64,000 nt of DNA from NCBI GenBank assembly GCA_946894095.1, contig OX335642.1:16937021-17001020 (forward strand), read 5' to 3'. The stretch is from Incurvaria masculella. Lineage: Eukaryota > Arthropoda > Insecta > Lepidoptera > Incurvariidae. The position numbers and the translations under genes were made by a program. Position 1 is the first letter of the stretch; each line of letters starts with the position of its first letter. Below, in pieces: positions 9,275-56,637 of this stretch. The notes under the pieces are model-generated. The model was not told the origin of the DNA and did not search any database. It saw nothing but the letters and a program-made list of their open reading frames with translations.

Positions 9275-9390
9275 ATGGTGAACGCAGGCGAAGATGTGCT
9301 CGTGTTCTACAACGACAAGGTTTCGTTCAACCACTTCATACAGATGATGCGGCAGTGCCGGGAGACTAAAGATATCCCCGAAGCCCTGAG
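9275..9390 (+). CDS. Itpr: Itpr exon w1, residues 1-39
   Basis: Encodes [14 protein letters not shown] and the following helix ([11 protein letters not shown]), part of the helical regulatory solenoid. The acceptor is taken as TTGGGCAG before 9275; a second AG at 9285-9286 is possible. The donor is AG|GTGGGT, leaving two bases that complete an Arg codon with exon w2. Confidence 0.85.
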
Positions 9391-45300: not shown

Positions 45301-48300
45301 ACTGCTAACGGCATACCAATGTTGAATGGGGATCATTAAAGTCCACAAGGGGACGTTGCAATTCACATTTAAGAATACATTAATTAGAAACCAATGAATA
45401 TCAGTGATATTTTTTATTTGAAATGACATTAAAAAATTTAACAATTTCATCACACCTACCTACGCAAAATTTGGAATCAAGCTTAGTTTAATGACGGTGT
45501 AACTAATTCTGGTAGTGACGGGAGATGGCGCTAGTTTGGTAGCCATTGTTCCTCTTGAATCTATGCTATAGGCTACCGCGTCTGGTCCTTAGCGTCACTG
45601 ACAACATACGATACAGATCTCAGCCTCACTACCCTAGAAGAAAGAAGACACCGGAGTGGCTTGATCGAAACTTTTAAAATTTTAAATGGACTTTACGATT
45701 TACTCAACCTTTGAACCATAATTACTAACCTTCTCTAGTTTAACGCGAGCAAGACACAGGCGTGCATATTCAGTGCGAAGTGTACTCGTTCAGTGTGGCT
45801 CCGACCTTCCAGGAAGCAACTCTAGGTATTGACGAGCATATCATAAGCATTATTGGTGTCGACCTGATGCATAACCTGAATTTCGAACGCCACATCGAGG
45901 ATAAATCCAAGCTCGCCTCGAAAAAGCTGGGAGTTCTCAACAGGGTGCGTCAGTATTTCACGCCTGACCAAAAACTACTCCTTTACAAGGCGCAGATAAG
46001 CTCCCGGCCATTCATGCCATTGTTCGCCTCCAAACCAAGTTGACCTCCTTGAGTATTACCGGGTTGCTTGCAAGACATTGCGCAGATCAACATGGTTGCC
46101 CGTGAGGTAGCCGGGAATATGCAACATGTAGTGTGTGATGTACACGAATCGTTACAGATGTGGATGAAGAGACCGTCGCCTGCGGAGACAACCCTGCCAA
46201 CAAATACTTACATGGTGAGTTTTTCGAAGTCGTGTGAGACGAACATGGCACTACGGAAAAAATGCTCACTCAAACTTTAAGGACACCCATTTTCGCTCGT
46301 AGACATATTTTTTTGTATGTTTAATCATGCGATCAGTCTTTTGACTATGAGCAGATGCGATGAGTGCTTTTCAGTTGGCATGAAGAGTAGGATAGGAGTA
46401 GGATGGAGACATAATTGTGGATTGATTTTCTTGCAAACTTATCAAAAATACCGTCCATGCGCCAGTGGCAAAAATTAATTACATTATTTTATTTTAAAAT
46501 AATCAGTGATAAATTCATGCGAAAGCTGATTCACTTCTATCTTTTTTTTCTGTAACTGAACATGGATAGCTAATACCAAACTAACCGTCAGGCATTAGCC
46601 TAATACACCACATGGGAACAAGGTGCCAGGCCAGGACATTCCTTATATTGCTCGGCTACATGAAATGGGTAATTTTCATTCGATGCGATGGTACCAACCC
46701 GGGCGTGATTAACCCTACCACGTAGTAAGTACGATCCGCACTACAGCCAGCTTCAACGTTTGAAAATGGTTTCCCATCTCCAACCCAACAGCGCTCAGAA
46801 TTGCTTCACCTAGCTTAGTGAACCGCAAGGGGTCGCGCCACTGGGCTACCAAGCCTGGTTGTAGTTTTCCGTGCATGCCACGTGGCGGTAACCTCGTGGG
46901 CTTTGTCTTATATTTCATTATCTTTTCATTTTCAGCCTTGTCGAGGTTTTAATCATGTGGTATTGTTATGTCTGTAATTTAATGGGTAATCTTAATCTCA
47001 ATCCAATTTTTATTTCTTCTCTAGTGAGATCAATGTTACCAAACAAAGAAATTTTAGATGGTTCAGTCTGTAAGGTCTTATACCAAATACCCTTTTCCAC
47101 CGATCTTTTATCAAAGTATTCTGATACATTTTGATACTGTAGCGTAAGCTACATTAGTTATGTGTAACCTGACTGCTGCGTCGTCAGCTATGTTTCTTTA
47201 CGTGCGCCGCGCGCGCACGCCATTAATTTAATTCAGTGAATATACGATCTTCAAGCAAAACACACGTATTTCACTCCGGCCTAGCGAGTCGTCATTTCAT
47301 CTTCGCTAATTCGGTGACCCTTACGTGTGATAAAATGTTAGTAATAGAGGTATGTATTTGAAAGGATGTGAATATGTAGCTAAAGCTCTTTTACCTAAAA
47401 GATCTGCTCTTTCGTTTCCTTCCACACCAACATGGGACGGTATCCACTGAATAATTATGTTTTTGCCCTTCATTATGTCTTTTAGGATCCCATATGCTAT
47501 CAGTCATGAATAGTCTTAGTCATTTAAAACAAAAAGGAGGATCAATTCCATGCATTGACAGAGTGTGCTGGAAATGAACTGTTGAGAGCTAATCTTATGA
47601 GAATTTTATGCACCGATAGAATTAACTGGTTTTTTAGGTTACACAAAGCCCTCGGACAACCCAACTCTGGAGAATTCCAGTCATTGACCCTGAGAAACGC
47701 TAGTATTGAAAGTAAAATGCACTATAGGGCTGACTTAACTGCTAAGCGGCTAAAGTCCCATCAAAATAAACAGAATTAAAAAAAAATGTTATTCGCATTT
47801 AGAGGCGGGCGGGCTGGAGCAGTGCCGGGCGGGGGTGGCGGGTGGCGCGGGGGCGGCGGGTGCGGGCGGGGGGGAAGGTGGCGGGGGCGCGCGGCTCGTG
47901 AGCGTGGGCGGGGAGGTGCGCGAGCGCTCGTGCGACTCGCTCATCATGTGCATCGTGACGACGCTCAACCAGGGCCTGCGCAACGGCGGCGGCATCGGCG
48001 ACATCATGCGGGCGCCCGCCAGCACTGTGAGTATTGTGCGAAGGCAGCTCCTGACGTGTGTAAATCTTTCAGGGAGGGCAACCGGGGCACCTGCCCGGGG
48101 GCTACACTAGATAGGTCCCTACATAAATAGTACTTATGATAATATGAATAGTTTGGTAAACCCAAACATGCCTTGCTTGAGCACTGTTGAACAAGTTGTT
48201 GTTTAAATGGACTAGCACTTTTTATTGGAATCTTTGGATCCTTTCTACATTTGAGTTGGCAGCTTGCCTTACATCTGAATGCCTTATGACTAAATCTGTC

Positions 48301-51300
48301 TGATGATTCGACAGCTCGCTCTCCAGGTAAAGCTACGAATTTCGGTTTAGAAGCCAGTGCATTTTAAGCAGCTGTATCCCTTCTGTGTACTAAATATGTC
48401 TCCTTCATGCCCTCTGCGACTGAATACAACAGGAGAGTGTCGTCTGACAGGAGCCGCTGTACGTCGCGCGTGTGGTGTACGACCTGCTGTTCTTCTTCGT
48501 GGTCATCATCATCGTGCTGAACCTCATCTTCGGTGTCATCATCGATACCTTCGCGGACCTCCGCAGTGAGAAGCAGCAGAAGGAGCTCATACTCAAGAAC
48601 ACCTGCTTCGTTTGCGGTACGTTTCTCACGGGATTTTATTGCTTTGCATTTTTTTATAGAAATGGACATGGGTGTCTGATATCGCGTCAACTGTCATGAA
48701 AGGAGCCCATCCCACCGCATTTCCGAAAGAACTGGGTGCCGAACCAAGAACTTCCGTTTATAATAGTGAGTGAGGGAGATAAAGATTTACGTGGAAGAAC
48801 CACAAATGACGAATGCCTTAGTCGGTTCTTAGGACATGCACTGAAAGCACCACTACATTGCTTACTTATCATTTTTCTTATTTTGACGTGATGTAAGCTA
48901 AACCGTAAAATATAAATCGGCCTAATCAGAGTCCACTAGTTAAGTAAGGAGACCCAATTTACGTGGAATCATTCAATCAATTCCTTCGTCGCCTCTTATC
49001 ACATGCATAGAAAGAAATGAAATGACTTGTCCACTTGTCTTCTTTTTACGCTCCGGAACCCACACAGCAAAGCATGCACGCTGTTTGAAAATGGTTTGTT
49101 TCTGCATAGATTTCTCAATGGATATCGGTCGAATCAGAGTCAGGTAGGGAACAGGTAGGGAAGTTTTACATGGAATCTGAACCAACAACGACGAATCCGT
49201 TAGTCACCTCTTATGATATGCACGGTGAAAAATTCAGGGGGCTCACTTGTCTTAATTTTACGTGTCCTTACTTGCATGCTTTCGGTGTATTGCATATTAA
49301 AAGTTGATATTGTGGAGTTTCTAATGTACTGAAGTGGCAGAAGTGTGCAGTGTATAGTGGTGTAGTGGACGGGGGTTGATGCAGGTCTCAACCGGTCGGC
49401 ATTCGATAACAAGACGGTCTCGTTCGAGGAGCACATCAAGAGCGAGCACAACATGTGGCACTACCTCTACTTCATGGTGCTGGTACGGGTGAAGGACCCC
49501 ACCGAGTTCACCGGGCCCGAGAGCTATGTGCACTCCATGATAAAGGTACGTACTTTCAGAGGCGTAACAAATCTAATGCTGAACTTGTTTCTTTATAATG
49601 ATCCTTAGATCTCTACAAAAGGAATCTTGAACTGGTTACTTAATCGTGATCCCTAGGTCCCTACGAAAGTAATGCAGAACTGGTTTCTTTAAAGTGAGCC
49701 AAAGGTAAAGGAGTGAAAGTAATGCTGAACTTTTTTTTTATGTAACAACATGGATGGCTAATACCCCCCAGTTCTGATACAAATCGAAAACCCCGTATTC
49801 CTGAAGGAATAAGGTGACCTGCCACAACCTTCTCTATATGAGCACAGGTATCTTGAACTGGGGGATAAACGGCGTAAAATTTGAGAAAATATGTGAGAGA
49901 ATTCTATCAATTCTGCTTATATTATAGATGGATTGATTGAAAATTCTTTATTACGCCACAAAAAAAAAAAACTATTTACAAAAGAAAGTATAGTGCAAAA
50001 ACAACATAAGTGGGGCGCAAAGGCGGGCTTATCCCTCGAAAAGATTTCTTCCAGCCGACCTTTGGGTGTTTGAGAAGTTTAATAGGTATATATTCGTAGG
50101 TAGTGGCGGTAGGTTTGGTTTGTTACTTTGAGTATTAACCTAAAACTAAGTAATCATTTGGTACATACATACATACATTAATTATGTAATAAACTTACTT
50201 AAAAATATTATAACAATAAACCTACATATATAATATTGCATATAATATTGCATACAGGGTGTCCCGGTTCCTGACGATAAACCGGGAGGTGGTGATAGCC
50301 CACATCACTACTAGCCTAAAGCGAGAAAAAAATTTAAATAAAAGTTTTTAGATTTCGAGATATGAGCAATTCTTTTATTTTTCAAAAATCGCCGTCTCGG
50401 TGTGGTCTTTTTAGTTTTTTGGATACTAAAATGTAAGTTATCCAGATAAAAAAAATACTTTATAATAGCTCAATAACGGCGCTTTAAGTTATTATAATCG
50501 CAAGACTTATAACTTTCAGGATAAATTATTAAAAAAAAGTAAAAACATTTTTTTTTTTATTTCATTTTTTTTTTCCAAACTTTAATGCATCACACTGAAA
50601 AAAAATTGTACCATGGATATCTGGCACGTCTATTCAAAAGTTGGCGCATTTAATGCCGTTTCTGAAATGGTATAATACTTTTGATTTTGTATGGCACATC
50701 TGTAAATATTACGATCCTAACTAAAATAAGAGCCAATTTTCACACATTCAATACTACCCAAACGAAATCATTGAAGGTGGCGAGTATCAAAATTGATGCA
50801 GCTAGAAACATTAATGAGTGTTATGAGTGCATACACTGGTTATTCAATAAAAAACTTTACTACAACTACAACTTTGTTTAATTTCAGTCTTGTGCTGATC
50901 TATCACCATCACCACCAGTTTAATTTCAGTCTTGTGCTGATCTATCACCATCACCACCAATATCTCCATCACTACAAAGCTTAAATAAAAAACAGATATT
51001 TTTAATGTTGATTTATTACACAAACCTTACAACAAGTGTTCAAATTGAGCACCACGTGCACGGATACAAGTGCGGCATCTTCTTACGAATGATCGTGTGA
51101 TGTTACGTGCCATATTGAGTCGGTTGCATTGTTCGGCGGCGGCATTGATGCGATGACGAAGATCTTCGACTGTTTCGATCTCTTTATGATACACTTTTTC
51201 TTTTAGGTATCCTCAATAAAAAAAAATCCATGGGATTTAAATCTGGTGAGCGTGCCGGCCACAAAATTGGTCCAAGTCGTCCAATCCATCTACCGGGAAA

Positions 51301-54300
51301 TTCTTCATCCAAATGATCTCTAACTGGCCGGGCGTAGTGGGCAGGACATCCGTCGTTTTGCAGCCACATAACTTGTCTTGTAGCTAAGGGGATGTCTTCT
51401 AAAAGGCCATCCAACTCGTTCCTAAGAAAATGTAAATAATATTGGGCGTTTAATACAGCAGGTATTTCAAATGGCCCGACCACCTGGCCATTAATAATAC
51501 CGCACCATAAGTTGATTTTAAATTGATACTGCGATCGGTCTGCTCTTGTGGCGTGCGGATTCGCTACGCTCCACTGATGTAAGTTGTGCATGTTCATGAA
51601 TCCGTCTTTTTTAAATGTACTCTCGTCCGTCCAAAGAATCTTGTTAAAAAATTCTGGATCAGCTGCGTGTCTCTCCAACATCTGTTGACAAAATGCCACT
51701 CTTGGTGCGTAATCGCGTGGCATTAGTTTTTGCACTCTTTGTACGTGGAATGGGTGGTATCTGTGTACTTTCAGTACTCGATGTGCAACCGATTTCGGTA
51801 TTCCGGTATTCCTCTCAATATCACGGAGAGAAGTGTCTGGATTTTCAGTCACACATGCCAGTACTTCGTCTTCGACGTCGGAGTCAACTACATTTCCTCC
51901 ATCCACGTTACGTTGCACTCCAGGAACGTGGCCTTCAGCGATAGAGCGATGTAAATTAATAAATACCCGGTAGTCAGGATACCTCTCCTCATTTTCATAT
52001 CGCTGGCGATAGAGTCTAGCTGCAGCATTTGCATTTCCATGACATTCGCCGTAAATAAAGTGCATGTTTGCGTACTGAAGGGGAGAATAATAATACGGCA
52101 TTGTCACTCACAATATCAAGTCCTAACAAAGTCCGGAGAGCACAGCAATGGTCGGCAATCCGAGTAATTCACAATCAACAAGTCCAAGTCACAAACACAG
52201 TTTCAACGTCCTTGGGGCACAGCAATGGTCAGTAGTCTTTATCGATAGCAGAGCATAAAAACACGAGCGAGGCGAGCGAAAGTAGAGAAACGAACTGACG
52301 AGATAAGGGAAGGGATGTGGGGGCGAGCAGCAGGACTACCTGTAAAAAATTTAAAAATTTAGTAAAAGTATGATATGATAATGATAAAAAGTAACATATC
52401 CACTAAATAAAGTTTCGACCATATTTAAATAGTTGTAATATCAATCACTTTTAGCATGACGTTATTGAATAGACTGGAATTCACACAATAATAGCTTGCC
52501 AGCCGCATCAATTTTGATACTCGCCACCTTCAATGATTTCGTTTGGGTAGTATTGAATGTGTGAAAATTGGCTCTTATTTTAGTTAGGATCGTAATATTT
52601 ACAGATGTGCCATACAAAATCAAAAGTATTATACCATTTCAGAAACGGCATTAAATGCGCCAACTTTTGAATAGACGTGCCAGATATCCATGGTACAATT
52701 TTTTTTCAGTGTGATGCATTAAAGTTTGGAAAAAAAAAATGAAATAAAAAAAAAATGTTTTTACTTTTTTTTAATAATTTATCCTGAAAGTTATAAGTCT
52801 TGCGATTATAATAACTTAAAGCGCCGTTATTGAGCTATTATAAAGTATTTTTTTTATCTGGATAACTTACATTTTAGTATCCAAAAAACTAAAAAGACCA
52901 CACCGAGACGGCGATTTTTGAAAAATAAAAGAATTGCTCATATCTCGAAATCTAAAAAACTTTTATCTAAATTTTTTTCTCGCTTTAGGCTAGTAGTGAT
53001 GTGGGCTATCACCACCTCCCGGTTTATCGTCAGGAACCGGGACACCCTGTATATATATATATATTATTTAATATACATCTAGCCCTAAATATTAGCGCTA
53101 AGTAAGTAAAGTAAAAAGTAAAAAAAAATATATTTTACGTATGTAGAATATTGGGCATCTACTTCTGATTGGTGTAGAGTTGATCGAATTACCTCACATA
53201 TTTTTTCACAATTTACGCGGGTTCAGCCCCTGGATGGAAAACATGGACAATTTTCATTGACATTTTGACTATATTTTTATCCAATGCGATGGTACCAACC
53301 CGGGCGGGCATAACCCTAGTAGGGGAAGGGACCTACAGTTATGCATTGATTCAGAACCATGGATAACTGTAGTATTCGTCACGACATGCACTTATCCAAC
53401 TCAGAAAGAAAAAGAAAGTGGTGCATGGATGGGCCGGCCTTTTGAACCCAGACCTCTGAAATGCAAGGCAAGTCCCTGCGTCACTGCGCTACCAGCTGCT
53501 CTTAAATGGAACTATTTTCTTTATAGTGAGCCTTGGGTCCTGTGAAAGTAATGCTGGTTTCGTTATAGTAAACCTTAGCTCCCAAAGTATTGAGAATGTT
53601 GTGCGTGTCTCCAGTCGAGCAACTTGGACTGGTTCCCGCGGCTGCGCGCGCTGTCGCTGGTGGGCGGCGGCGAGGGCGAGGCAGGCGAGGTGGAGCTGCG
53701 CTCGCTGCAGGCGCAGCTGGAGCGCGCGCACGCCGCCGTCGGCTCGCTCACCACGCTGCTCACGGAGCTGCGCGACCAGGTCGGTGCACTGTCTCCGCGC
53801 GTGCGTGTCTCCAGTCGAGAGACCTGGACTGGTTCCCGCGGCTGCGCGCGCTGTCGCTGGTGGGCGGCGGCGAGGGCGAGGCGGGCGAGGTGGAGCTACG
53901 CTCGCTGCAGGCGCAGCTGGAGCGCGCGCACGCCGCCGTCGGCTCGCTCACCACGCTGCTCACGGAGCTGCGCGACCAGGTCGGTGCACTGTCTCCGCGC
54001 GTGCGTGTCTCCAGTCGAGAGACCTGGACTGGTTCCCGCGGCTGCGCGCGCTGTCGCGGGTGGGCGGCGGCGAGGGCGAGGCGGGCGAGGTGGAGCTGCG
54101 CTCGCTGCAGGCGCAGCTGGAGCGCGCGCACGCCGCCGTCGGCTCGCTCACCACGCTACTCACGGAGCTGCGCGACCAGGTCGGTGCACTGTCTCCGCGC
54201 GTGCGTGTCTCCAGTCGAGAGACCTGGACTGGTTCCCGCGGCTGCGCGCGCTGTCGCGGGTGGGCGGCTGCGAGGGCGAGGCGGGCGAGGTGGAGCTGCG

Positions 54301-56028
54301 CTCGCTGCAGGCGCAGCTGGAGCGCGCGCACGCCGCCGTCGGCTCGCTCACCACGCTACTCACGGAGCTGCGCGACCAGGTCGGTGCACTGTCTCCGCGC
54401 GTGCGTGTCTCCAGTCGAGAGACCTGGACTGGTTCCCGCGGCTGCGCGCGCTGTCGCGGGTGGGCGGCTGCGAGGGCGAGGCGGGCGAGGTGGAGCTGCG
54501 CTCGCTGCAGGCGCAGCTGGAGCGCGCGCACGCCGCCGTCGGCTCGCTCACCACGCTACTCACGGAGCTGCGCGACCAGGTCGGTGCACTGTCTCCGCGC
54601 GTGCGTGTCTCCAGTCGAGAGACCTGGACTGGTTCCCGCGGCTGCGCGCGCTGTCGCGGGTGGGCGGCGGCGAGGGCGAGGCGGGCGAGGTGGAGCTGCG
54701 CTCGCTGCAGGCGCAGCTGGAGCGCGCGCACGCCGCCGTCGGCTCGCTCACCACGCTACTCACGGAGCTGCGCGACCAGGTCGGTGCACTGTCTCCGCGC
54801 GTGCGTGTCTCCAGTCGAGAGACCTGGACTGGTTCCCGCGGCTGCGCGCGCTGTCGCGGGTGGGCGGCGGCGAGGGCGAGGCGGGCGAGGTGGAGCTGCG
54901 CTCGCTGCAGGCGCAGCTGGAGCGCGCGCACGCCGCCGTCGGCTCGCTCACCACGCTACTCACGGAGCTGCGCGACCAGGTCGGTGCACTGTCTCCGCGC
55001 GTGCGTGTCTCCAGTCGAGAGACCTGGACTGGTTTCCGCGGCTGCGCGCGCTGTCGCTGGTGGGCGGCGGCGAGGGCGAGGCGGGCGAGGTGGAGCTGCG
55101 CTCGCTGCAGGCGCAGCTGGAGCGCGCGCACGCCGCCGTCGGCTCGCTCACCACGCTACTCACGGAGCTGCGCGACCAGGTCGGTGCACTGTCTCCGCGC
55201 GTGCGTGTCTCCAGTCGAGAGACCTGGACTGGTTTCCGCGGCTGCGCGCGCTGTCGCTGGTGGGCGGCGGCGAGGGCGAGGCGGGCGAGGTGGAGCTGCG
55301 CTCGCTGCAGGCGCAGCTGGAGCGCGCGCACGCCGCCGTCGGCTCGCTCACCACGCTACTCACGGAGCTGCGCGACCAGGTCGGTGCACTGTCTCCGCGC
55401 GTGCCTGTCCTGTCGTGTGCACTCACTAGCGGGACACTCCGGGGCGTCCCCACTTCTCGATCTTGCATACTACTGGCCTGGTGGTGAACCACGCAAACTC
55501 CTCGCCCGGGTGCTCCGCGGATCCTGTCGCTGTATTGTTACGCGGGTGGGGTGTAGTTAGAGGTGGAAACGCCAAAAATTTATAATAACTAAACTTACAA
55601 ATCAACAATTTTATTCCAAATCTATACGTCACTGCGAACACAACTCGAAACAATATCACTCGTTGAACTGTTTCACTAAAGGAACTAGTTCACTCGTATC
55701 ACTTCGGAGATTCACTATCGCCTGTTATCGCTTGTTTATCATCTAACATCGTCCTTAGTCAAATGTCAAATACTGCTAATGTCAAACACTGAATTGTTTT
55801 TAGTGGACAGCTGTGTCCGTGTTGACAATTCGGAAACAATCAATAAAATTGTGGCATCGCATGTTGCGAGGAGCAATAAAACTGAACAACTATTCTTATT
55901 AGGTGTTCATCTTAGTAAGCTGTCCTGCTTCACAGATGACGGAGCAACGCAAGCAGAAGCAGCGCATCGGTCTCCTGACCTCCACCAACGCTTACCTCCA
56001 CAACGCTCATCTCAACCTGCCCTCGTGA
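9275..56028 (+). CDS. Itpr: Inositol 1,4,5-trisphosphate receptor, C-terminal half, 30 exons
   Basis: IP3-gated calcium release channel of the ER membrane; it works as a tetramer. Joining 9275-9390, 10110-10245, 11049-11223, 12334-12476, 15667-15787, 16323-16465, 17535-17621, 18346-18452, 19426-19537, 21635-21746, 29388-29528, 30545-30636, 32702-32846, 33477-33590, 34263-34420, 34799-34979, 36437-36666, 38282-38383, 38870-39007, 40767-40959, 41674-41796, 42512-42684, 43701-43865, 45085-45259, 46158-46214, 47803-48026, 48451-48616, 49385-49545, 53615-53779 and 55936-56028 gives 4248 nt in one frame. Recognition rests on strongly conserved blocks: [42 protein letters not shown], the GGGIGD filter, [15 protein letters not shown] and NLDWFPR. 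The N-terminal suppressor and IP3-binding domains lie upstream of the window. The exons are GC-rich at third positions, unlike the introns. Residue numbers in the exon entries count from the first visible codon. Confidence 0.96.
9630..9889 (+). mobile_element. SINE copy (tRNA-headed family), + orientation
   Basis: About 260 bp matching in reverse complement the copies at 53262 and 60246; shared landmarks are TATCCATGCCAGACACC near one end and GGTATTAGCCATCCATGA at the other. It lies in the intron between exons w1 and w2. Confidence 0.7.
10110..10245 (+). CDS. Itpr: Itpr exon w2, residues 39-84
   Basis: Contains [19 protein letters not shown], one of the best conserved stretches of the receptor's central solenoid. 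Acceptor CCCTTGTAG, donor GAG|GTGAGT. The two bases carried over from exon w1 join its first base, giving the continuous reading EALRYHIQLV across the junction. Confidence 0.95.
10246..11048 (+). other. Itpr intron, no gene seen
   Basis: AT-rich, with a short local duplication at 10248-10370 (GAGTCGAAAACACAGTTGAC and GAGTCGAGAACACAGTTGAC about 75 bp apart). Nothing else was recognised. Confidence 0.5.
11049..11223 (+). CDS. Itpr: Itpr exon w3, residues 85-143
   Basis: Encodes [17 protein letters not shown] and [17 protein letters not shown], solenoid helices. Acceptor AATTGCAG. The donor ACAG|GTAGCG is weaker than most and is set by the phase needed for exon w4. The last third (after PDMTRIVQL) is less conserved than the rest. 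Confidence 0.9.
11224..12333 (+). other. Itpr intron, no gene seen
   Basis: Moderate GC around 11280-11640, with overlapping short ORFs on both strands but no domain. AT-rich afterwards. Confidence 0.45.
12334..12476 (+). CDS. Itpr: Itpr exon w4, residues 143-190
   Basis: Encodes solenoid sequence ending [15 protein letters not shown], a hallmark of the family. Acceptor TGGTTCCAG, donor CAG|GTCACT. The exon ends in phase 0 and leads directly into [10 protein letters not shown] of the next exon. Confidence 0.93.
12477..14340 (+). other. Itpr intron, repeat-like GC-rich block at 13260-13970
   Basis: 12990-13230 resembles 48920-49080 (TGCATGGAAAGAAATG, AACCCACACAGCA), a diverged dispersed repeat. 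13500-13970 is unusually GC-rich, with recurring TACTAGC motifs at about 13590-13620; no TIR or LTR could be established. Confidence 0.45.
14341..14850 (-). mobile_element. LINE fragment: RNase H end and C-terminus
   Basis: The minus strand resembles the region after RNase H in the LINE at 1-5250 (compare 14570-14730 with 30-210). It then reads [18 protein letters not shown] and ends near SEEFQ. The frame is broken near 14535. It is a degraded 3' piece of an I-like LINE inside the intron before exon w5. Confidence 0.7.
15667..15787 (+). CDS. Itpr: Itpr exon w5, residues 191-231
   Basis: Encodes [19 protein letters not shown] and [12 protein letters not shown] in phase 0. Acceptor GTTGTAG, donor G|GTATGG. 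Other open frames over this stretch are shadows; only this frame matches the receptor and joins both neighbours. Confidence 0.93.
15907..16232 (-). mobile_element. SINE copy, diverged
   Basis: Shares TTTTCATCCAATGCGA, ATGGATTCTGAACCATGGA and CAGACCTCTGGGATGGAAGG with the copies at 53262 and 60246. It is inserted in the intron between exons w5 and w6. Confidence 0.65.
16323..16465 (+). CDS. Itpr: Itpr exon w6, residues 231-278
   Basis: Begins [16 protein letters not shown], matching the conserved KSRAIAIP block of vertebrate receptors, and ends in a basic, helix-prone linker ([11 protein letters not shown]). Acceptor TTCCCGCAG, donor CAG|GTGGGT. Confidence 0.93.
16655..16780. repeat. Dispersed repeat, partner at 31755-31880
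   Basis: Both copies share CCTAACCTACT, AAGACGCC and ACTCTCGGC in the same order and spacing. The family is not identified. Confidence 0.55.
17535..17621 (+). CDS. Itpr: Itpr exon w7, residues 279-307
   Basis: Small 29-codon exon, phase 0 at both ends, encoding [19 protein letters not shown]; it matches the EDRLRPLV region of the family. Acceptor after a TG repeat (GTGTGCAG), donor CAG|GTGTGT. Symmetric phase would let it be skipped without a frameshift. Confidence 0.92.
17622..18345 (+). other. Itpr intron; A-box-like motif only
   Basis: At 17789 TGGCGGAATTGGTAGACGC resembles the 5' part of a leucine tRNA and fits the pol III A box, but no matching acceptor stem or B box follows. The rest is AT-rich with nothing recognised. 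Confidence 0.4.
18346..18452 (+). CDS. Itpr: Itpr exon w8, residues 308-343
   Basis: Encodes [17 protein letters not shown] followed by a variable Gly/Asn patch and GKFISR. Acceptor GTCTGCAG, donor AG|GTCAGT. The split Arg codon is completed by exon w9. Confidence 0.95.
18453..19425 (+). other. Itpr intron, AT-rich, LINE-tail-like sequence
   Basis: Around 18835-18862 the sequence GAATAAAGAATTGAATTGAA looks like the 3' tail of a non-LTR element. The remaining 550 bp is very AT-rich with short repeats (ATATCATATCATG at 19127-19139). Confidence 0.4.
19426..19537 (+). CDS. Itpr: Itpr exon w9, residues 343-380
   Basis: Encodes [20 protein letters not shown] and [13 protein letters not shown], conserved solenoid helices. 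Acceptor GTTTCCAG, donor AAG|GTAACC. Confidence 0.95.
19640..19830 (+). mobile_element. CR1-like LINE 3' end with terminal hairpin
   Basis: Begins with a trace of the ORF2 end (reading TNQFKNRLD) and ends with a hairpin at 19763-19796 (TTTAGACA ... TGTCTAAA) followed by a TAAATAAA-rich tail. A second copy with the same hairpin lies at 32390-32640. Confidence 0.65.
20149..21400 (-). mobile_element. 5'-truncated LINE with RNase H and (CAA)n tail
   Basis: The minus-strand ORF 21378-20248 encodes RT-thumb-like sequence ([18 protein letters not shown]), RNase H ([43 protein letters not shown]) and a C-terminal zinc knuckle ([18 protein letters not shown]). The element ends in a (GTT)n tract on the + strand at about 20152-20176, i.e. 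(CAA)n on its own strand. The 5' part is missing, typical of aborted reverse transcription. Confidence 0.88.
20248..21378 (-). CDS. LINE ORF2 C-terminal remnant (376 aa): RNase H and zinc knuckle
   Basis: Intact over 376 codons but lacks endonuclease and most of RT, so it cannot mobilise the element. The RNase H has the expected D-E-D-D series (TDGS, AECV, LTDS, NDAADD). The Met start is an accident of truncation. It lies antisense in the intron before exon w10. Confidence 0.85.
   Translation of the reverse strand: MFCKNGCMRTTPSTALEVLLGLPPLDLIIQREAAAAAFRLRTTGFWSGETRAQHTTILSLALEENPLLGVRCDRIPKTYNFDRLYTIELYEGPKDYSGLREVRVYTDGSKTEYGTGAGCFSADLNIKRTVMLGAGNSIFQAECVGLIEAAAAIKQREMVDYTIRILTDSASVLKALANQTFTSGLIKQCHEALQDISIDNRITLQWIKGHSGSHGNDAADDLAKAGSSLKPVGPEPFMPTPFSEVKTWLRKRMTRAHTARWSSTADCRQSREAVPAPDPHLTRKLLQLHRPQLRTVVSLLTGHCQLNKHLHTIGVTDSPLCRACLEAEETPAHIVMECRQLQTFWTGVFSFERSDPQVWKDPKGLLRFVEELGWLK
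21635..21746 (+). CDS. Itpr: Itpr exon w10, residues 381-418
   Basis: Encodes [13 protein letters not shown], equivalent to the RQVLVNRYYG segment of vertebrates, and then a proline/alanine-rich disordered linker ([14 protein letters not shown]). Acceptor GTCCGCAG, donor GGCG|GTCAGT. A 7.6-kb repeat-filled intron follows; further small phase-1 exons in it cannot be excluded. Confidence 0.9.
21747..23463 (+). other. Itpr intron; possible Harbinger-related MITE at about 21935-22060
   Basis: 21935-22060 has CCTTAGCATGC and CATGCTAATTCGAT with TATCGAAAAATTCGATATCG between them, wording shared with 28160-28260 next to the Harbinger fragment. At 22311-22691 overlapping ORFs on both strands have no recognised domain. 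The rest is AT-rich. Confidence 0.4.
23464..24022. mobile_element. hAT-like MITE with another repeat nested inside
   Basis: Terminal inverted repeats CAGGGTTTCTTAACC (23464) and GGTTAAGAAACCCTG (ends 24022). They are flanked by ATATAAAG and ATACAAAG, an 8-bp target duplication with one mismatch, as hAT elements make. The right part (about 23712-24005) is a separate lepidopteran-type repeat ending GGTACGGAACCCT. Confidence 0.8.
23712..24005 (-). repeat. GGTTCCGTAC-type dispersed repeat, reverse copy
   Basis: Reverse complement of the copies at 29594-29867 and 35053-35333: a GGTTCCGTACCCAAAGGGT head, a run of CCGTCCGTCCG, and an end with CGCACTTGGCCGG. It is nested inside the hAT-like MITE. 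Confidence 0.8.
24599..24654. repeat. Near-perfect palindrome, 25-bp arms
   Basis: GGCTTACCGTACGTGTGAGG-type left arm and its complement on the right, with one mismatch and a 6-nt loop (CACGTC). Half of the same sequence recurs at 63187-63223. Confidence 0.85.
24744..24990 (-). mobile_element. SINE copy with a clear B-box-like motif
   Basis: Contains GCTAATACCAATCCAACCG at one end and GGGGTTCGAACCACGGCC further in. Its reverse complement carries GGTTCGAACCCC, close to the RNA polymerase III B box, as expected of a tRNA-derived SINE read on the minus strand. Confidence 0.7.
25258..25525. repeat. Dispersed repeat, partner at 45338-45530
   Basis: Both copies contain CCAATGAATATCA or CCATGAATATCACTGATAT and end with TAATGACGGTGTAACTA. 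The family is unknown. Confidence 0.6.
25526..27690 (+). other. Itpr intron, mostly unrecognised
   Basis: Apart from the SINE at 26548-26900 nothing is identified. GGAATTTGTAGGTTATG occurs at about 26493 and again at about 27470, and CCTGTAAAGAT at 26057 and 27199, suggesting a diverged duplicated unit of about 1 kb. Confidence 0.35.
26548..26900 (-). mobile_element. SINE copy with tRNA-like head
   Basis: The reverse complement begins GGCCCAGTGGTGCGATGC (A-box-like) and runs through GGCTGTGGTGCGGATTCC to the AT-rich tail region. It is related to the copies at 24744 and 46547. Confidence 0.7.
27732..27983 (-). pseudogene. PIF/Harbinger nuclease fragment
   Basis: The minus-strand frame encodes an Arg-rich region and then [20 protein letters not shown], the N-terminal signature of Harbinger (HARBI1-like) transposases. 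The DDE catalytic part is absent to the left. The stretch 27985-28260 upstream may hold the element's terminal sequence (AATTAGCATGCTCGCCC at its outer end). Confidence 0.6.
28261..29387 (+). other. Itpr intron, no gene recognised
   Basis: AT-rich. A minus-strand ORF at 28457-28792 (111 aa, Cys-containing tail) has no recognisable domain and is not supported as a gene. Confidence 0.4.
29388..29528 (+). CDS. Itpr: Itpr exon w11, residues 418-465
   Basis: Encodes [20 protein letters not shown], nearly identical to the AEVQCHLDKEGASNLV block. Acceptor GTGTGCAG, donor CTAG|GTCCGT. Phase 1 at both ends. Confidence 0.95.
29594..29867 (+). repeat. GGTTCCGTAC-type dispersed repeat
   Basis: Head GGGGTTCCGTACACAAAGGG, then GTCCGTCCGTC, and an end reading CGCGAACTTGGCCGGTTTTT. 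The internal near-end GGTGCGGAACC is an imperfect inverted version of the head. It lies just after exon w11. Confidence 0.8.
29868..30544 (+). other. Itpr intron, nothing recognised
   Basis: Ordinary AT-rich intron sequence up to the acceptor of exon w12. Confidence 0.5.
30545..30636 (+). CDS. Itpr: Itpr exon w12, residues 465-495
   Basis: Encodes [20 protein letters not shown] and ends AFFK, matching the conserved IALLEGGN block. Acceptor TGGCACAG, donor AAG|GTAAAC. Confidence 0.95.
30780..30866 (+). mobile_element. SINE fragment next to the miniature LTR element
   Basis: Its reverse complement contains CGAACCACGAGCAGGCTCAA and GGTCACCCATCTAAAACCCA, matching the head-proximal part of the copies at 24744 and 26548. 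Confidence 0.5.
30868..31421 (+). mobile_element. Miniature LTR (TRIM-like) element with two 165-bp LTR-like repeats
   Basis: Two direct repeats, 30868-31032 and 31257-31421, begin TGTTGGTTACCAC and end TTTGTGACA, so they have TG...CA ends, and each contains CAATAAACC. I count three differences between them. The 224-bp internal part is GC-rich and has no gag-pol. No convincing target duplication was found, so a tandem LTR-like duplication is the alternative. Confidence 0.65.
31422..31722. repeat. AT-rich insert between repeat segments, starts with (TTTCA)n
   Basis: Separates the second LTR-like repeat from AATACCAACATCACCCA at about 31724. The same 17-mer follows the first LTR-like repeat directly at 31032, so this stretch looks like a later insertion. 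Confidence 0.5.
31755..31880. repeat. Dispersed repeat, partner at 16655-16780
   Basis: Shares CCTAAGACGCC, CCCTAACCTACTCAAT and ATACTCTCGGCGCT with the first copy. Confidence 0.55.
32203..32336. mobile_element. Short MITE-like inverted repeat element
   Basis: About 134 bp bounded by TATTCAAGGAATGTGATATG and its inverse complement at 32313-32336. No coding capacity. The target duplication is unclear. Confidence 0.5.
32390..32640 (+). mobile_element. CR1-like LINE 3' end with terminal hairpin
   Basis: Same family as 19640-19830: an ORF2-end trace (CAACCAATCAATTCAAAAAT), a hairpin at 32588-32619 (TTAGACA ... TGTCTAA) and an AAATAAATAAATAA tail. It lies just before exon w13. Confidence 0.65.
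32702..32846 (+). CDS. Itpr: Itpr exon w13, residues 496-544
   Basis: Encodes [17 protein letters not shown], conserved, followed by a very GC-rich, Ala/Pro/Ser-rich linker that replaces the variable linker of vertebrates. Acceptor GTGCTGCAG, donor GACG|GTACCG. Confidence 0.93.
32847..33476 (+). other. Itpr intron; B-box-like motif at about 33337
   Basis: GGTCATGGGTTCAATGCCCG preceded by ATTAGTTGATTGGTTTC may be the head of another tRNA-derived SINE. Body and tail could not be delimited. Confidence 0.35.
33477..33590 (+). CDS. Itpr: Itpr exon w14, residues 544-582
   Basis: A poorly conserved linker exon ([19 protein letters not shown]). It is assigned by its position, the acceptor CACTCCTAG, the donor CACG|GTGAGT and exact phase fit (1 to 1). 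It is the least certain of the solenoid exons on sequence alone. Confidence 0.8.
33591..34262 (+). other. Itpr intron, nothing recognised
   Basis: AT-rich except 34080-34240. A local inverted motif TATTCTTCAAG/CTTGAAGAATA occurs at 33686-33716. Confidence 0.4.
34263..34420 (+). CDS. Itpr: Itpr exon w15, start of RIH-associated domain, residues 582-634
   Basis: A Gly-rich linker leads into [20 protein letters not shown], the start of the RIH-associated domain shared by IP3 and ryanodine receptors. Acceptor CATGCGCAG. The donor is non-canonical, CAG|GCAAGC. The next exon must begin AAC CTG in phase 0, and the nearby GT at 34427 would break the frame. Confidence 0.93.
34452..34755 (+). repeat. 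Dispersed insect repeat with RTE/SINE-like wording
   Basis: Starts GACTAGCTACCCACCCTCC, contains ACCAAAATCGGTCCAGCTGT and ends with ATACAGACATACATAAATTT. This layout is typical of repeats derived from RTE-like elements in insects. Related wording occurs at 42759-42910 (CAAAATCGTTTGAACCG). Confidence 0.6.
34799..34979 (+). CDS. Itpr: Itpr exon w16, RIH-associated domain, residues 635-695
   Basis: Encodes [34 protein letters not shown] and [14 protein letters not shown], almost invariant across animals. Acceptor TTTGTGACAG, donor CAGG|GTCTGT. Confidence 0.97.
35053..35333 (+). repeat. GGTTCCGTAC-type dispersed repeat
   Basis: Head AGGGTTCCGTACCCAAAGGG, then CTGTCCGTCCGTCCGTC, and an end GGTACGGAACCCTTCG followed by CCTTGGCCAGTTTTT. 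It lies in the intron after exon w16. Confidence 0.82.
35334..36436 (+). other. Itpr intron, no gene seen
   Basis: About 1.1 kb of AT-rich sequence before exon w17 with no recognisable element. Confidence 0.45.
36437..36666 (+). CDS. Itpr: Itpr exon w17, RIH-associated domain, residues 695-771
   Basis: Encodes [46 protein letters not shown] and AERILYNM. Compared with the vertebrate SENAERI block there is one extra Asn (SENNAERI). Acceptor ACGGCAG, donor CTG|GTGAGT. Confidence 0.97.
36995..38060 (+). repeat. Imperfect short tandem repeats around the TTAA MITE
   Basis: Repeats of roughly 70-110 bp with CATGACATAGACT, a CCAAATTGGTTC-like word and GTTAAGACATGAT occur before (37017-37155) and after (37650-37680, 37850-38040) the MITE. 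They provide the uninterrupted version of its insertion site. Confidence 0.6.
37156..37649 (+). mobile_element. TTAA-flanked MITE, copy 1
   Basis: 494 bp between two TTAA tetramers (37152-37155 and 37650-37653), with inverted ends GGTGGCCCAACCCG and CGGGTTGGGCCACC. It splits a local repeat: GTTAAGACATGATGG occurs uninterrupted nearby at 37964. TTAA duplication suggests mobilisation by a piggyBac-like transposase. Confidence 0.88.
38282..38383 (+). CDS. Itpr: Itpr exon w18, acidic linker, residues 772-805
   Basis: Encodes [12 protein letters not shown] followed by an acidic serine-rich run ([12 protein letters not shown]) in the place of the acidic linker of vertebrate receptors, between the regulatory solenoid and the channel. 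Such runs often attract CK2-type phosphorylation; that is an inference. Acceptor TATGTGCAG, donor GAG|GTAAGT; phase 0 at both ends. Confidence 0.9.
38384..38869 (+). other. Itpr intron, nothing recognised beyond short repeats
   Basis: Contains TTAGGTCAGTT and related words several times (38577, 38793, 38799), perhaps a diverged short repeat. Confidence 0.4.
38870..39007 (+). CDS. Itpr: Itpr exon w19, residues 806-851
   Basis: Encodes [19 protein letters not shown] and [13 protein letters not shown], conserved sequence of the cytosolic juxtamembrane region. Acceptor TATGTGCAG, donor GAG|GTGAGT; phase 0 at both ends. Confidence 0.96.
39284..39604 (+). mobile_element. TTAA MITE family, diverged copy
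   Basis: Shares GATGACCATTGGCA, TTAGCTGTAAGTCGTTTTGT and GTGCCCGCGAATGAGTTAGT with copy 1; the ends are degraded. Confidence 0.7.
39799..39969. repeat. 55-bp inverted arms around a (CCTAA)6 tract
   Basis: Arms 39799-39853 and 39915-39969 are complementary with one mismatch. The 61-nt spacer holds six CCTAA units (39881-39910), the insect telomeric motif TTAGG on the other strand. Confidence 0.88.
39970..40370. repeat. Lepidopteran-type repeat with GAAGTCGGTTA at both ends
   Basis: TTGAAGTCGGTTA occurs at about 39983 and 40352. Between them lie AATCACCGAAATCGGTTGGC and CATCAAAATCGGTTCACCCA. The family is not named. Confidence 0.5.
40767..40959 (+). CDS. Itpr: Itpr exon w20, residues 852-916
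   Basis: Encodes [30 protein letters not shown] and MKWQKKLR, the cytosolic segment that leads into the first membrane helix. Acceptor CTCCCCCCAG, donor AGAG|GTGAGG. Confidence 0.96.
40960..41673 (+). other. Itpr intron, no element recognised
   Basis: AT-rich; short ORFs here have no coding signature. Confidence 0.45.
41674..41796 (+). CDS. Itpr: Itpr exon w21, TM1, residues 916-957
   Basis: Encodes [20 protein letters not shown] and FFYPF, membrane segment 1, matching the family block SFWSSISFNLAVL. Acceptor GTCATCCAG, donor CCCA|GTAAGT. Confidence 0.95.
41866..42003 (-). mobile_element. SINE fragment
   Basis: Matches the tail half of the family (CACTGCATTCCTGAAGGG, TTAGGTGCCATGCGAGGACC). 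It lacks the tRNA-like head and lies in the intron after the TM1 exon. Confidence 0.6.
42512..42684 (+). CDS. Itpr: Itpr exon w22, TM2 and start of TM3, residues 957-1014
   Basis: Two hydrophobic stretches: [20 protein letters not shown] (TM2) and the conserved [18 protein letters not shown] leading into TM3. Acceptor GCGGTTGCAG, donor ACG|GTCGGT. Confidence 0.95.
43438..43662 (+). mobile_element. TTAA MITE family, 5'-deleted copy
   Basis: The right 225 bp of the family: ACACTATGCACATTGTC, GAAGGTCCCAGAGCGCAACA and CGGGTTGGGCCACC followed by TTAA. It sits 38 bp upstream of exon w23. Confidence 0.8.
43701..43865 (+). CDS. Itpr: Itpr exon w23, TM3 end and TM4, residues 1015-1069
   Basis: Encodes [19 protein letters not shown] and then TM4 with [20 protein letters not shown]. 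The loop matches the FVGNCGTFT region of vertebrates. Acceptor TACCCCGCAG, donor CTC|GTGAGT. Confidence 0.95.
43866..45084 (+). other. Itpr intron, no gene seen
   Basis: About 1.2 kb, AT-rich. The 64-codon ORF at 44057-44251 has no recognisable features. Confidence 0.45.
45085..45259 (+). CDS. Itpr: Itpr exon w24, S4-S5 linker and TM5, residues 1070-1128
   Basis: Encodes [20 protein letters not shown], the nearly invariant linker before the pore, then TM5 ([20 protein letters not shown]) and FFRDDFL facing the ER lumen. Acceptor GATTTCAG, donor CTCG|GTGAGT. Confidence 0.97.
45338..45530. repeat. Dispersed repeat, partner at 25258-25525
   Basis: Shares AATGAATATCAGTGATATT and TTTAATGACGGTGTAACTA with the first copy. 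It lies after exon w24. Confidence 0.6.
45725..46045 (+). mobile_element. LINE reverse transcriptase fragment
   Basis: The + strand reads [15 protein letters not shown], then after a frameshift near 45780 [15 protein letters not shown] and [20 protein letters not shown], then [12 protein letters not shown]. This is the C-terminal RT/thumb region of a LINE ORF2. It ends about 110 bp before micro-exon w25. Confidence 0.75.
46158..46214 (+). CDS. Itpr: Itpr exon w25, luminal-loop micro-exon, residues 1128-1147
   Basis: A 57-nt phase-1-to-phase-1 exon, too short for an ORF scan. It reads [19 protein letters not shown] after completion by the G from exon w24. The acceptor is GAATCGTTACAG and the donor CATG|GTGAGT. 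It lies in the TM5-pore luminal loop, which varies widely between species. Skipping it would keep the frame, so it may be optional. Confidence 0.75.
46547..46860 (-). mobile_element. SINE copy with tRNA-like head
   Basis: Contains ATGGATAGCTAATACCAAAC at the tail end. The reverse complement begins GGTAGCCCAGTGGCGCGACC, a good A-box context. It lies in the intron between exons w25 and w26. Confidence 0.75.
47030..47500 (-). mobile_element. I-like LINE RNase H remnant, interrupted
   Basis: The minus strand reads [18 protein letters not shown] at about 47400-47475 and [13 protein letters not shown] at about 47045-47100, matching the LINE at 1-5250. The stretch 47142-47340 interrupts it and begins with palindromic TGTAGCGTAAGCTACA; it may be an LTR fragment. 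Confidence 0.65.
47555..47779 (+). mobile_element. LINE C-terminal remnant, + orientation
   Basis: Reads [20 protein letters not shown] and GEFQSL, homologous to the minus-strand remnant at 14341-14535 ([18 protein letters not shown]). It lies in inverted orientation next to the 47030-47500 remnant and ends 24 bp before exon w26. Confidence 0.6.
47803..48026 (+). CDS. Itpr: Itpr exon w26, Gly-rich luminal loop and pore, residues 1147-1221
   Basis: The first part is an unusual Gly/Ala-rich luminal segment with a single Cys. The second part is the pore: [18 protein letters not shown] followed by the selectivity filter GGGIGD (GGGVGD in vertebrates). Acceptor TTCGCATTTAG, donor CACT|GTGAGT. The phase requires the first AG of the acceptor's AGAG. 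Confidence 0.93.
48451..48616 (+). CDS. Itpr: Itpr exon w27, TM6 gate, residues 1222-1277
   Basis: Encodes TM6 and its cytosolic extension: [20 protein letters not shown] and [17 protein letters not shown], the gate helix of the channel. It ends with CFVC, the cysteine pair of the C2H2 zinc finger. Acceptor TCTGACAG, donor TGCG|GTACGT. Confidence 0.97.
48655..48880 (-). mobile_element. SINE fragment, diverged
   Basis: Shares the tail-half landmarks (CCACCGCATTTCCGAAAGAA, GGGTGCCGAACCAAGAACTT) with other copies. It lies between exons w27 and w28. Confidence 0.5.
49385..49545 (+). CDS. Itpr: Itpr exon w28, zinc finger and linker, residues 1277-1330
   Basis: Encodes [17 protein letters not shown], whose two histidines complete the C2H2 finger begun by CFVC in exon w27, and then [17 protein letters not shown]. 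This linker domain couples cytosolic and membrane parts. Acceptor GATGCAG, donor AAG|GTACGT. It ends in phase 0 ahead of the tandem exon array. Confidence 0.97.
49737..49880 (-). mobile_element. SINE fragment
   Basis: Contains CATGGATGGCTAATACC and CCGTATTCCTGAAGGAATAA, the tail half of the family, just downstream of exon w28. Confidence 0.6.
50876..50959 (+). repeat. 42-bp tandem duplication inside the mariner-type element
   Basis: Two units containing CAGTCTTGTGCTGATC and ATCACCATCACCACCA, just inside the left inverted repeat and absent from the right side. Confidence 0.9.
51027..52107 (-). pseudogene. Tc1/mariner-superfamily transposase with C-terminal frameshift
   Basis: Cut-and-paste DDE transposase. 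The first 307 codons are open: an N-terminal helix-turn-helix region, then [19 protein letters not shown], catalytic [19 protein letters not shown] and [14 protein letters not shown]. Counting from the Asp of QND to the Asp of PMD gives 41 residues between, i.e. a DD41D-type triad. A frameshift near 51205-51215 replaces the end; the other frame continues [20 protein letters not shown] to a stop at 51027-51029. Confidence 0.88.
53262..53503 (-). mobile_element. SINE copy just upstream of the tandem exon array
   Basis: The reverse complement starts with a tRNA-like head: A-box-like GGTAGCGCAGTGACGCAGG, then B-box-like GGGTTCAAAAGG. The body shares ACTTATCCAACTCAGAAAG and GGAAGGGACCTACAG with the copy at 60246. 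Confidence 0.75.
53615..53779 (+). CDS. Itpr: Itpr exon w29 (copy 1 of the tandem coiled-coil exon), residues 1331-1385
   Basis: 55 codons, phase 0 at both ends: [19 protein letters not shown], then an acidic hinge and a heptad-patterned helix ([20 protein letters not shown]) ending ELRDQ. This is the C-terminal coiled coil that bundles the four subunits. Acceptor GTGTCTCCAG, donor CAG|GTCGGT. Copy 1 reads SSNLDW and all later copies SRDLDW; the vertebrate form is RNLDW, so copy 1 keeps the ancestral Asn. Confidence 0.93.
53815..55379 (+). CDS. Itpr: Eight further tandem copies of Itpr coiled-coil exon w29
   Basis: 165-nt exon copies start at 53815, 54015, 54215, 54415, 54615, 54815, 55015 and 55215, each with the same CCAG acceptor and CAG|GTCGGT donor as copy 1 and each open in phase 0. 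Differences are few: copies 3-7 read LSRVGG instead of LSLVGG, copies 4 and 5 have GGCEGE, and copies 8 and 9 carry a silent TTC to TTT. All could encode a coiled coil. Whether any is spliced into mRNA cannot be told from DNA. Confidence 0.85.
55405..55935 (+). other. Last Itpr intron, downstream of the exon array
   Basis: AT-rich after 55560. No extra exon copy is seen beyond the ninth. The acceptor of exon w30 is at 55934-55935. Confidence 0.7.
55936..56028 (+). CDS. Itpr: Itpr exon w30, C-terminus and stop, residues 1386-1415
   Basis: Encodes [20 protein letters not shown] and a short tail ending NLPS, with stop TGA at 56026-56028. [14 protein letters not shown] is the invariant C-terminus of the family. 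Acceptor TGCTTCACAG. The initial Met is internal to the protein. Confidence 0.96.
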   Translation: MTEQRKQKQRIGLLTSTNAYLHNAHLNLPS

Positions 56029-56065: not shown

Positions 56066-56637
56066 TACATATTACGTTCATTCCCACAATCTCTCGCGGG
56101 AAAATTCCCATGGAGTTGAATAATGTGCGATTGGAACCCCTTGTATGTGTTCAGAAATGTTTCGGGTAACAAACATTATCGTTAAGGGGAATATTGAAAT
56201 AAAACTACTACATATTATGTTCATTTCCACAATTTCTCACGGGTAAATTCCCATGGAGTTGAATAATGTGCGATTGGAACCCCTTGTATGTGTTCAAAAA
56301 TGTTTCGGGTAACAAACATTATCGTTAATGGAAATATTGAAATAAAACTACTACATATTACGTTCATTTCCACAACCTCTTACTGGAAAATTTCCATGGA
56401 GCTTGAATAATGTGTGGTTGAACCCCTGACATGTATTAAGAAATGTTTTTGATAACAAATATTATCATTAATGGGAACATTAAAATAAAACCACTATATA
56501 TTACATTCGTTTTCACAATCTCACACGGGAAAATTCCCATGGGGATTGAATAATGTGTGATTCGAACCCCTTGTATGTGTTCAGTAATGTTTCAGGTAAC
56601 AATCATTATCGTTAATGGCAACATTGAAATAAAACTT
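56066..56637 (+). repeat. Four 143-bp tandem repeats in the Itpr 3'UTR, each with AATAAA
   Basis: Units begin at about 56066, 56209, 56352 and 56495, starting 38 nt after the stop codon. Each contains CCCATGGAGTTGAATAATGT or a variant, and near its end GAAATAAAAC. The AATAAA hexamers are at 56198, 56341, 56484 and 56628. Units 1 and 2 are the most alike, unit 3 the most diverged. Confidence 0.93.

What the first reader, a model, noticed from the sequence alone, without database searches (positions are those of the whole stretch)
53601..55400. Nine tandem copies of the Itpr coiled-coil exon
The penultimate exon of an essential calcium channel is amplified into nine 200-bp units, each with an open 165-nt phase-0 exon and intact splice sites. 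One copy suffices for an ordinary receptor. If several were joined, the C-terminal coiled coil would lengthen by 55 residues per copy; if one is chosen, this is a set of near-identical alternative exons. I know of no such arrangement in IP3 receptors, though I cannot search.
Basis: partly seen in the sequence, partly recalled or inferred. Interest (0 to 1): 0.9.

Follow-up and report, generated by a model that had tools for sequence, protein, structure and literature searches.

The report
Nine-copy exon repeat in insect channel
In one moth- or butterfly-like insect, a single small exon of an essential calcium-channel gene has been copied nine times in a row so recently and so tightly that neighbouring copies probably cannot be spliced together, so the cell most likely uses one copy and skips the rest.

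Summary
In detail: 53601-55409 has nine head-to-tail 200-bp units, 96.5-100% identical, each a 165-nt phase-0 exon plus a 35-nt spacer. The gene is a lepidopteran-type IP3 receptor, open from 9263 to 56028.

Joining neighbours is unlikely. The eight spacers are identical 35-mers whose only adenine outside the AG is at position 9, below the branch-point spacing reported for flies. The shortest of 28 introns mapped in this gene is 378 nt. Skip-one joining (235 nt) stays possible.

All 208 relatives fetched (198 named insects, 10 unnamed) carry the segment once. Copy 1 is closest to them; copies 3-7 have Arg at a position that is Leu in 207 of 208.

Variants lie in nested contiguous runs, as stepwise unequal crossing-over leaves them; GTGC microhomology marks the breakpoint.

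Best reading: a recent exon-spanning tandem repeat, one copy used per mRNA, most likely the first; a new variant of tandem exon duplication. No RNA, read or population data could be examined, so the copy used and the exact copy number are unproven.

The parts
9263..49545 (+). Itpr (IP3 receptor) exons upstream of the array, from about residue 1321 of the Mythimna protein P0001 to ...ESYVHSMIK
   Evidence: tblastn, placement of 28 introns between the tblastn blocks, joined CDS of 4203 nt with a single terminal stop; the 5' boundary of the first exon was not determined, and no match to residues 1-1320 of P0001 was found in the window
49385..49545 (+). Exon just before the array (LNRSAFDNK...ESYVHSMIK), ends in phase 0
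   Evidence: 54 residues 100% identical to P0001 and P0020; borders
49546..53614 (+). Intron before copy 1 (4069 nt), holding a Tc/mariner-like element at about 50256-53050
53601..55409 (+). Array of nine 200-bp units
53615..53779 (+). Copy 1 exon (SSNLDWFP...TELRDQ), ancestral-like start, native upstream intron
53780..53814 (+). 35-nt spacer 1; the same sequence recurs between all copies (8 of 8 identical)
53815..53979 (+). Copy 2 exon (SRDLDWFP...), same peptide as copies 8 and 9
54015..54179 (+). Copy 3 exon (ALSRVGGG), same peptide as copies 6 and 7
54215..54379 (+). Copy 4 exon (ALSRVGGC), same peptide as copy 5
54415..54579 (+). Copy 5 exon
54615..54779 (+). Copy 6 exon
54815..54979 (+). 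Copy 7 exon
55015..55179 (+). Copy 8 exon
55215..55379 (+). Copy 9 exon
55380..55935 (+). Sequence after copy 9 up to the last exon; its first 25 nt match the spacer, then it diverges (right breakpoint)
55936..56028 (+). Last coding exon ([30 protein letters not shown], stop)

Best explanation
A recent exon-spanning tandem repeat (a minisatellite or VNTR whose unit is one whole coding exon plus 35 nt). A first duplication happened between two GTGC motifs, 14 bp before and 21 bp after the exon; unequal crossing-over then expanded it to nine units. At the RNA level most mature transcripts should carry exactly one copy, most likely copy 1, giving an ordinary-length receptor; copies 2-9 are skipped as part of a 2156-nt downstream intron. 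Shown: the DNA structure in this one assembly, the nested variants, the spacer sequence, and the single segment in the fetched relatives. Inferred: that neighbours cannot be joined (from spacing minima reported for flies), and that copy 1 is the copy used (from its native upstream intron, its higher acceptor score and its ancestral-like sequence).
For: Nine variable sites: 0 of 36 site pairs fail the four-gamete test, and every set of copies differing from copy 1 is one contiguous run ({2-9}, {3-9}, {3-7}, {4,5}, {8,9}, {2}). The breakpoints share GTGC, then 4 of 5 further bases. The spacer is 35 nt and identical in 8 of 8, its adenines at 9 and 34 only. In flies the 5'ss-to-branch and branch-to-3'ss minima appear to be about 35 and 15 nt (PMC5762160, passages). 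The shortest of 28 mapped introns in this gene is 378 nt; that one has a GC donor, the next is 424 nt. 208 of 208 fetched proteins have one copy of the segment, counted by the motif [DE]WFPR[LM]R. Position -3 before WFP is Asn in 32 of 33 lepidopteran-type proteins, kept in copy 1 and Asp in copies 2-9; the Leu of ALSL (207 of 208) is Arg in copies 3-7. Acceptor score: copy 1 8.8, copies 2-9 5.6; donors identical in 9 of 9.
Against: No RNA evidence. Copies 2-9 keep credible splice sites (acceptor above 10 of 23 in this gene, donor above 17 of 23), so their complete exclusion is not assured. Copy 1 has no strong branch-site match between -120 and -14 (one TTTAT at -92), while copies 2 and 3, the later ones examined, have CTCAC at -53 and -65 in the preceding exon copy. 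The Arg at -4 of copies 2-9 is common outside Lepidoptera (108 of 208), and one lepidopteran has Asp at -3, so the SRD start alone is not proof of decay. Substitutions among copies are 4 non-synonymous to 5 synonymous sites, which leans towards constraint without reaching significance (P 0.10-0.16). The minimum-spacing argument is borrowed from flies, and the same paper set its aligner to 25 nt as the smallest intron in the FlyBase annotation.
Confidence: 0.55

Rival explanations
1. One copy per transcript, but any of the nine: mutual exclusion enforced by spacing between neighbours, with little or no preference among nearly identical exons.
For: All nine copies have the same donor and acceptable acceptors; neighbours are probably too close to be joined; any single copy keeps the frame, being 165 nt in phase 0.
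Against: Spacing only bars neighbours, not 1-to-3 and so on. No exact complementarity beyond shuffled sequence was found between the unit or spacer and the flanking introns. Copies 3-7 carry Arg at a near-invariant Leu.
Confidence: 0.2
2. Several non-neighbouring copies are joined (for example 1-3-5), lengthening the C-terminal region by 55 residues per extra copy and yielding length isoforms.
For: Every exon is 165 nt in phase 0, so any combination keeps the frame; k-to-k+2 introns are 235 nt, with CTCAC at -53/-65 as a candidate branch site.
Against: No fetched receptor has more than one segment (0 of 208). The unit has a helix break. [quoted passage not shown]
Confidence: 0.1
3. The array or its copy number is an assembly error.
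For: Nearly identical 200-bp units are hard to assemble; no reads could be inspected.
Against: Six distinct variant distributions, all contiguous and mutually compatible, are what stepwise duplication leaves and would be an odd product of an assembler; under random placement the four sets of size 2-7 would all be contiguous with chance about 1.6e-4.
Confidence: 0.1
4. The array is retained as one long exon or retained intron, giving a different or truncated C-terminus or a regulatory non-productive transcript.
For: All three forward frames are open across the array; retention of 4 or 7 whole units keeps the frame.
Against: Nine units add 1765 nt (1 mod 3), shift the frame and replace the conserved tail. 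Open frames are unsurprising at 75% GC.
Confidence: 0.05

Closest known systems
Mutually exclusive exon clusters from tandem exon duplication (Dscam1; insect RyR second SPRY domain)
   Same: Tandem homologous internal exons of equal length and phase with conserved splice sites, the features used by PMC3228551 to predict such exons (passages); insect RyR, the related channel, has such a site in 21 of 26 species (PMC6026295, passages)
   Different: Copies here are 96.5-100% identical and encode four peptides; spacers are 35 nt; no exact docking/selector complementarity found; not seen in any of 208 fetched relative proteins
LPA kringle IV type 2 coding VNTR (human)
   Same: Exon-containing tandem repeat with nearly identical units (KIV-2 exons 98-100% identical, PMC7613587, passages)
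   Different: LPA units are 5.6 kb (PMC11462820, abstract in listing) with about 1.2 kb between units, so all copies can be joined; here the unit is 200 bp and the gaps are 35 nt
Coding minisatellites inside one exon (for example mucins; recalled)
   Same: Short GC-rich unit expanded in tandem
   Different: Here the unit spans both splice sites, so expansion multiplies exons and does not lengthen one exon; 200 is not a multiple of 3
Insect IP3 receptor gene (Itpr)
   Same: Intact exon series and one homologous segment expected per protein
   Different: Nine genomic copies of the penultimate coding exon

Membership tests
IP3 receptor gene | Exons collinear with IP3R proteins and an open reading frame | tested here: met
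   29 exons (penultimate counted once, the first incomplete) joined to 4203 nt with one terminal stop; 75.5-79.7% identical to 33 lepidopteran-type proteins over 1192-1297 aligned residues, the last 85 residues counted apart; no match for residues 1-1320 of P0001 in the window
Tandem exon duplication | Adjacent homologous exons with splice sites | tested here: met
Mutually exclusive exon cluster | Equal length, same phase, homologous sequence | tested here: met
   165 nt, phase 0, 9 of 9
Mutually exclusive exon cluster | Exactly one copy included per mRNA | not testable with these tools
   no transcript data; spacing argues only against joining neighbours
Mutually exclusive exon cluster | Docking/selector base pairing (Dscam-type) | tested here: inconclusive
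   longest exact complementary runs 6-9 nt, reached by 15-100 of 100 single-base shuffles; G-U pairs and gaps not modelled
Mutually exclusive exon cluster | Diverged alternatives | tested here: not met
   minimum pairwise identity 96.5%, four peptides
LPA-type coding VNTR | Nearly identical tandem coding units | tested here: met
LPA-type coding VNTR | Units separated by introns long enough for all copies to be joined | tested here: not met
   35-nt spacers against minima reported for flies
LPA-type coding VNTR | Copy number varies between individuals | not testable with these tools
   one assembly only; the genome search did not complete

The most novel reading that the evidence does not exclude
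A natural splicing ruler: because neighbours cannot be joined but every second copy can, the gene yields IP3 receptors whose C-terminal region comes in steps of 55 residues (one to five copies), with copy number set by a hypervariable DNA repeat, so that calcium-channel gating varies between individuals or tissues.
Probability: 0.08. Interest if true: 0.85.

Novelty: new variant of a known kind. Interest (0 to 1): 0.45.

Why it matters
If the array is real, an exon present once in every relative examined has become a nine-copy repeat whose copies all carry usable-looking splice sites but lie too close together for neighbours to be joined. That is a natural test of how a spliceosome picks among nearly identical competing exons (first, last or random) and of how mutual exclusion by spacing can arise in one step, before any regulatory RNA structure or divergence. 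It also shows how a gene could tolerate, or pay for, an exon-spanning minisatellite.

Tried and rejected
Functional set of diverged alternative exons: rejected, because the copies encode only four peptides and differ at 9 of 200 positions.

Continuous lengthening of a coiled coil by joining neighbours: thought unlikely, from the 35-nt spacers and the helix break.

Selection inferred from open exons: rejected. With nine changes, no stop is expected with probability 0.75. The 4:5 non-synonymous to synonymous split is not significant (P 0.10-0.16), and neither is the absence of changes in the spacer (P 0.18).

Docking/selector RNA pairing: nothing beyond shuffles. Pfam on the 55-residue exon: no family up to E 0.01.

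Led nowhere: the genome search on the window's own assembly did not answer in six tries, so a second Itpr locus or other copies of the unit elsewhere in the genome could not be checked. A literature search for the shortest introns gave one paper of no use here, and (minimum intron length) gave nothing used. DNA of related insects was not examined; the comparison rests on annotated or predicted proteins, which could hide unannotated copies.

Full report
WHAT IS THERE. Window 53601-55409 is a nine-unit tandem array, period exactly 200 bp. Each unit holds a 165-nt open segment flanked by TCTCCAG| and CAG|GTCGGT, in 9 of 9 copies. Nine of 200 positions vary, all within the exon; pairwise identity is 96.5% at least and 98.6% on average. 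The unit is 75% GC against 41% for the window.

THE GENE. The 55-residue segment matches residues 2670-2722 of solved IP3R1 and the equivalent part of ITPR2 and ITPR3; 10 of 12 hits lie at about E 2e-7 or better. A protein search with the preceding exon returned 1650 proteins at E 0.001 or better, of which the best 120 were listed, insects or unnamed. A search with the copy-1 exon returned 196, best 120 listed. tblastn with the Mythimna protein P0001 places a collinear series of exons on the + strand from 9263 to the C-terminus, and finds nothing for residues 1-1320. Placing splice sites between the tblastn blocks gives 28 introns; an intron inside a block would have been missed. Four of the 28 were set aside for later scoring: three weak placements and one with a GC donor. 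The joined coding sequence is 4203 nt with one stop, at the end. The gene is therefore not an obvious pseudogene over the part seen. Outside its last 85 residues it is 75.5-79.7% identical to each of 33 lepidopteran-type proteins (32 named Lepidoptera, some species more than once, and one unnamed) and 64.6-67.6% identical to four other insects. That places it in or near Lepidoptera. It is farther from Mythimna (78.2%) than Plutella is (84.8%). The species is not known to me.

IS IT REAL. I could not see reads. The variants speak for a real array. Every set of copies that differs from copy 1 is a contiguous run: {2-9} at four sites, and {3-9}, {3-7}, {4,5}, {8,9} and {2} at one site each. None of 36 site pairs fails the four-gamete test. 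If the four sets of size 2-7 were placed at random, the chance of all being contiguous is about 1.6e-4. This is the pattern of stepwise local duplication. The exact number of units still rests on one assembly.

HOW IT AROSE. The sequence before copy 1 matches the spacer without a break only in the last 14 nt, and the sequence after copy 9 matches it for the first 25 nt; both breakpoints lie at GTGC, followed one base later by TGTC. So the first duplication joined two short similar stretches 14 bp before and 21 bp after the exon. That alone explains why each unit carries both splice sites; selection need not be invoked. With nine changes, the chance that none makes a stop is 0.75.

WHAT THE SPLICEOSOME CAN DO WITH IT. 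The spacer is 35 nt and identical in 8 of 8. Its only adenine other than that of the AG is at position 9. [quoted passage not shown] Against this, the same paper set its aligner to a minimum of 25 nt because that is the smallest intron in the FlyBase annotation it used. Human introns of 43, 49 and 56 nt are reported as spliced (PMC4463651, passages seen). The shortest of the 28 introns mapped in this gene is 378 nt, with a GC donor; the next is 424 nt. So a copy should not be joined to its neighbour. Joining a copy to the next but one would use a 235-nt intron, which is possible, with CTCAC at -53 or -65 as candidate branch site inside the skipped copy. With a position matrix from 23 introns of this gene (24 of 28 kept, the array's own first-copy sites left out), the shared donor scores above 17 of 23, the copy-1 acceptor above 16 of 23, and the acceptors of copies 2-9 above 10 of 23. 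This small matrix ranks sites; it does not predict usage.

WHICH COPY. Each of the 208 fetched proteins contains the motif [DE]WFPR[LM]R once. This rests on annotation or prediction, and only proteins of 1650-5250 residues could be candidates. In the 33 lepidopteran-type proteins the residue at -3 from WFP is Asn in 32 and Asp in 1; copy 1 has Asn, copies 2-9 have Asp. The Arg at -4 of copies 2-9 is absent from those 33 but present in 108 of 208 overall. The Leu of ALSL is Leu in 207 of 208 and Arg in copies 3-7. Copies 4 and 5 have in addition Gly to Cys. Copy 1 also keeps the native upstream intron. These facts favour copy 1 as the copy that serves the protein. Against this, the changes among copies are 4 non-synonymous and 5 synonymous sites, a mild lean towards constraint that is not significant (P 0.10-0.16 depending on the transition weight), and the upstream intron has no strong branch-site match close to copy 1.

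CONSEQUENCE FOR THE PROTEIN. In IP3R1 the C-terminal helices of four subunits form a central bundle that is coupled to ligand binding, and deleting the last 60 residues greatly impaired the channel (PMC6274648, passages seen). A single-sequence model of copy 1 (mean pLDDT 78.6) has helix 6-17, a break and helix 22-54. Two joined copies would thus repeat a kinked unit and would probably not extend one coil. This model had no alignment and is a rough guide.

PRIOR KNOWLEDGE. Three literature searches for tandem or mutually exclusive exons with IP3 receptors or Lepidoptera listed no title or abstract that describes such an array (20 of 183 papers listed; 12 of 70; 12 of 52). [quoted passage not shown] Tandem exon duplication as a kind is well known: about 10% of animal genes, as cited in PMC9013439 (passages seen). 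The nearest coding VNTR that I compared, LPA KIV-2, has 98-100% identical exons but about 1.2 kb between units (PMC7613587, passages seen).

VERDICT. The DNA arrangement is real as far as one assembly can show, and unusual. The most likely mechanism is an exon-spanning minisatellite from which one copy, probably the first, is used. Single-copy use and the identity of the used copy are inferences.

Noticed in passing
56066-56636: A second tandem array just after the stop codon, four units of 143 bp (85% matches), with AATAAA or ATTAAA at 56198, 56341, 56479 and 56628: the apparent 3' UTR or poly(A) region is repeated too.
   Followed up: partly
about 50256-53050: The intron before the array holds a Tc/mariner-like element with long terminal inverted repeats (seen by eye) and a 307-codon minus-strand ORF at 51184-52107; Pfam gives DUF4817 and HTH_IclR just above their cut-offs and DDE_3 and HTH_Tnp_Tc3_2 below theirs.
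   Followed up: partly
55936-56028: The C-terminal tail [18 protein letters not shown] departs from the nearly fixed LLNSTSAYLQNLQMNLPP of Lepidoptera: 21-25 of 30 identical to 32 of the 33 lepidopteran-type proteins and 22 of 29 to Plutella, while P0001 is 30, 29, 30 and 30 of 30 and 28 of 29 identical to the five others tested.
   Followed up: partly
47803-47890: The exon after the intron that starts at 45260 begins with a G-rich, glycine-coding stretch (TRF units at 47827-47887) where P0001 has an acidic loop; its placement is one of the weak ones.
   Followed up: no
50876-50959: Two perfect 42-bp copies containing a His-codon-rich stretch, inside the transposon region.
   Followed up: no
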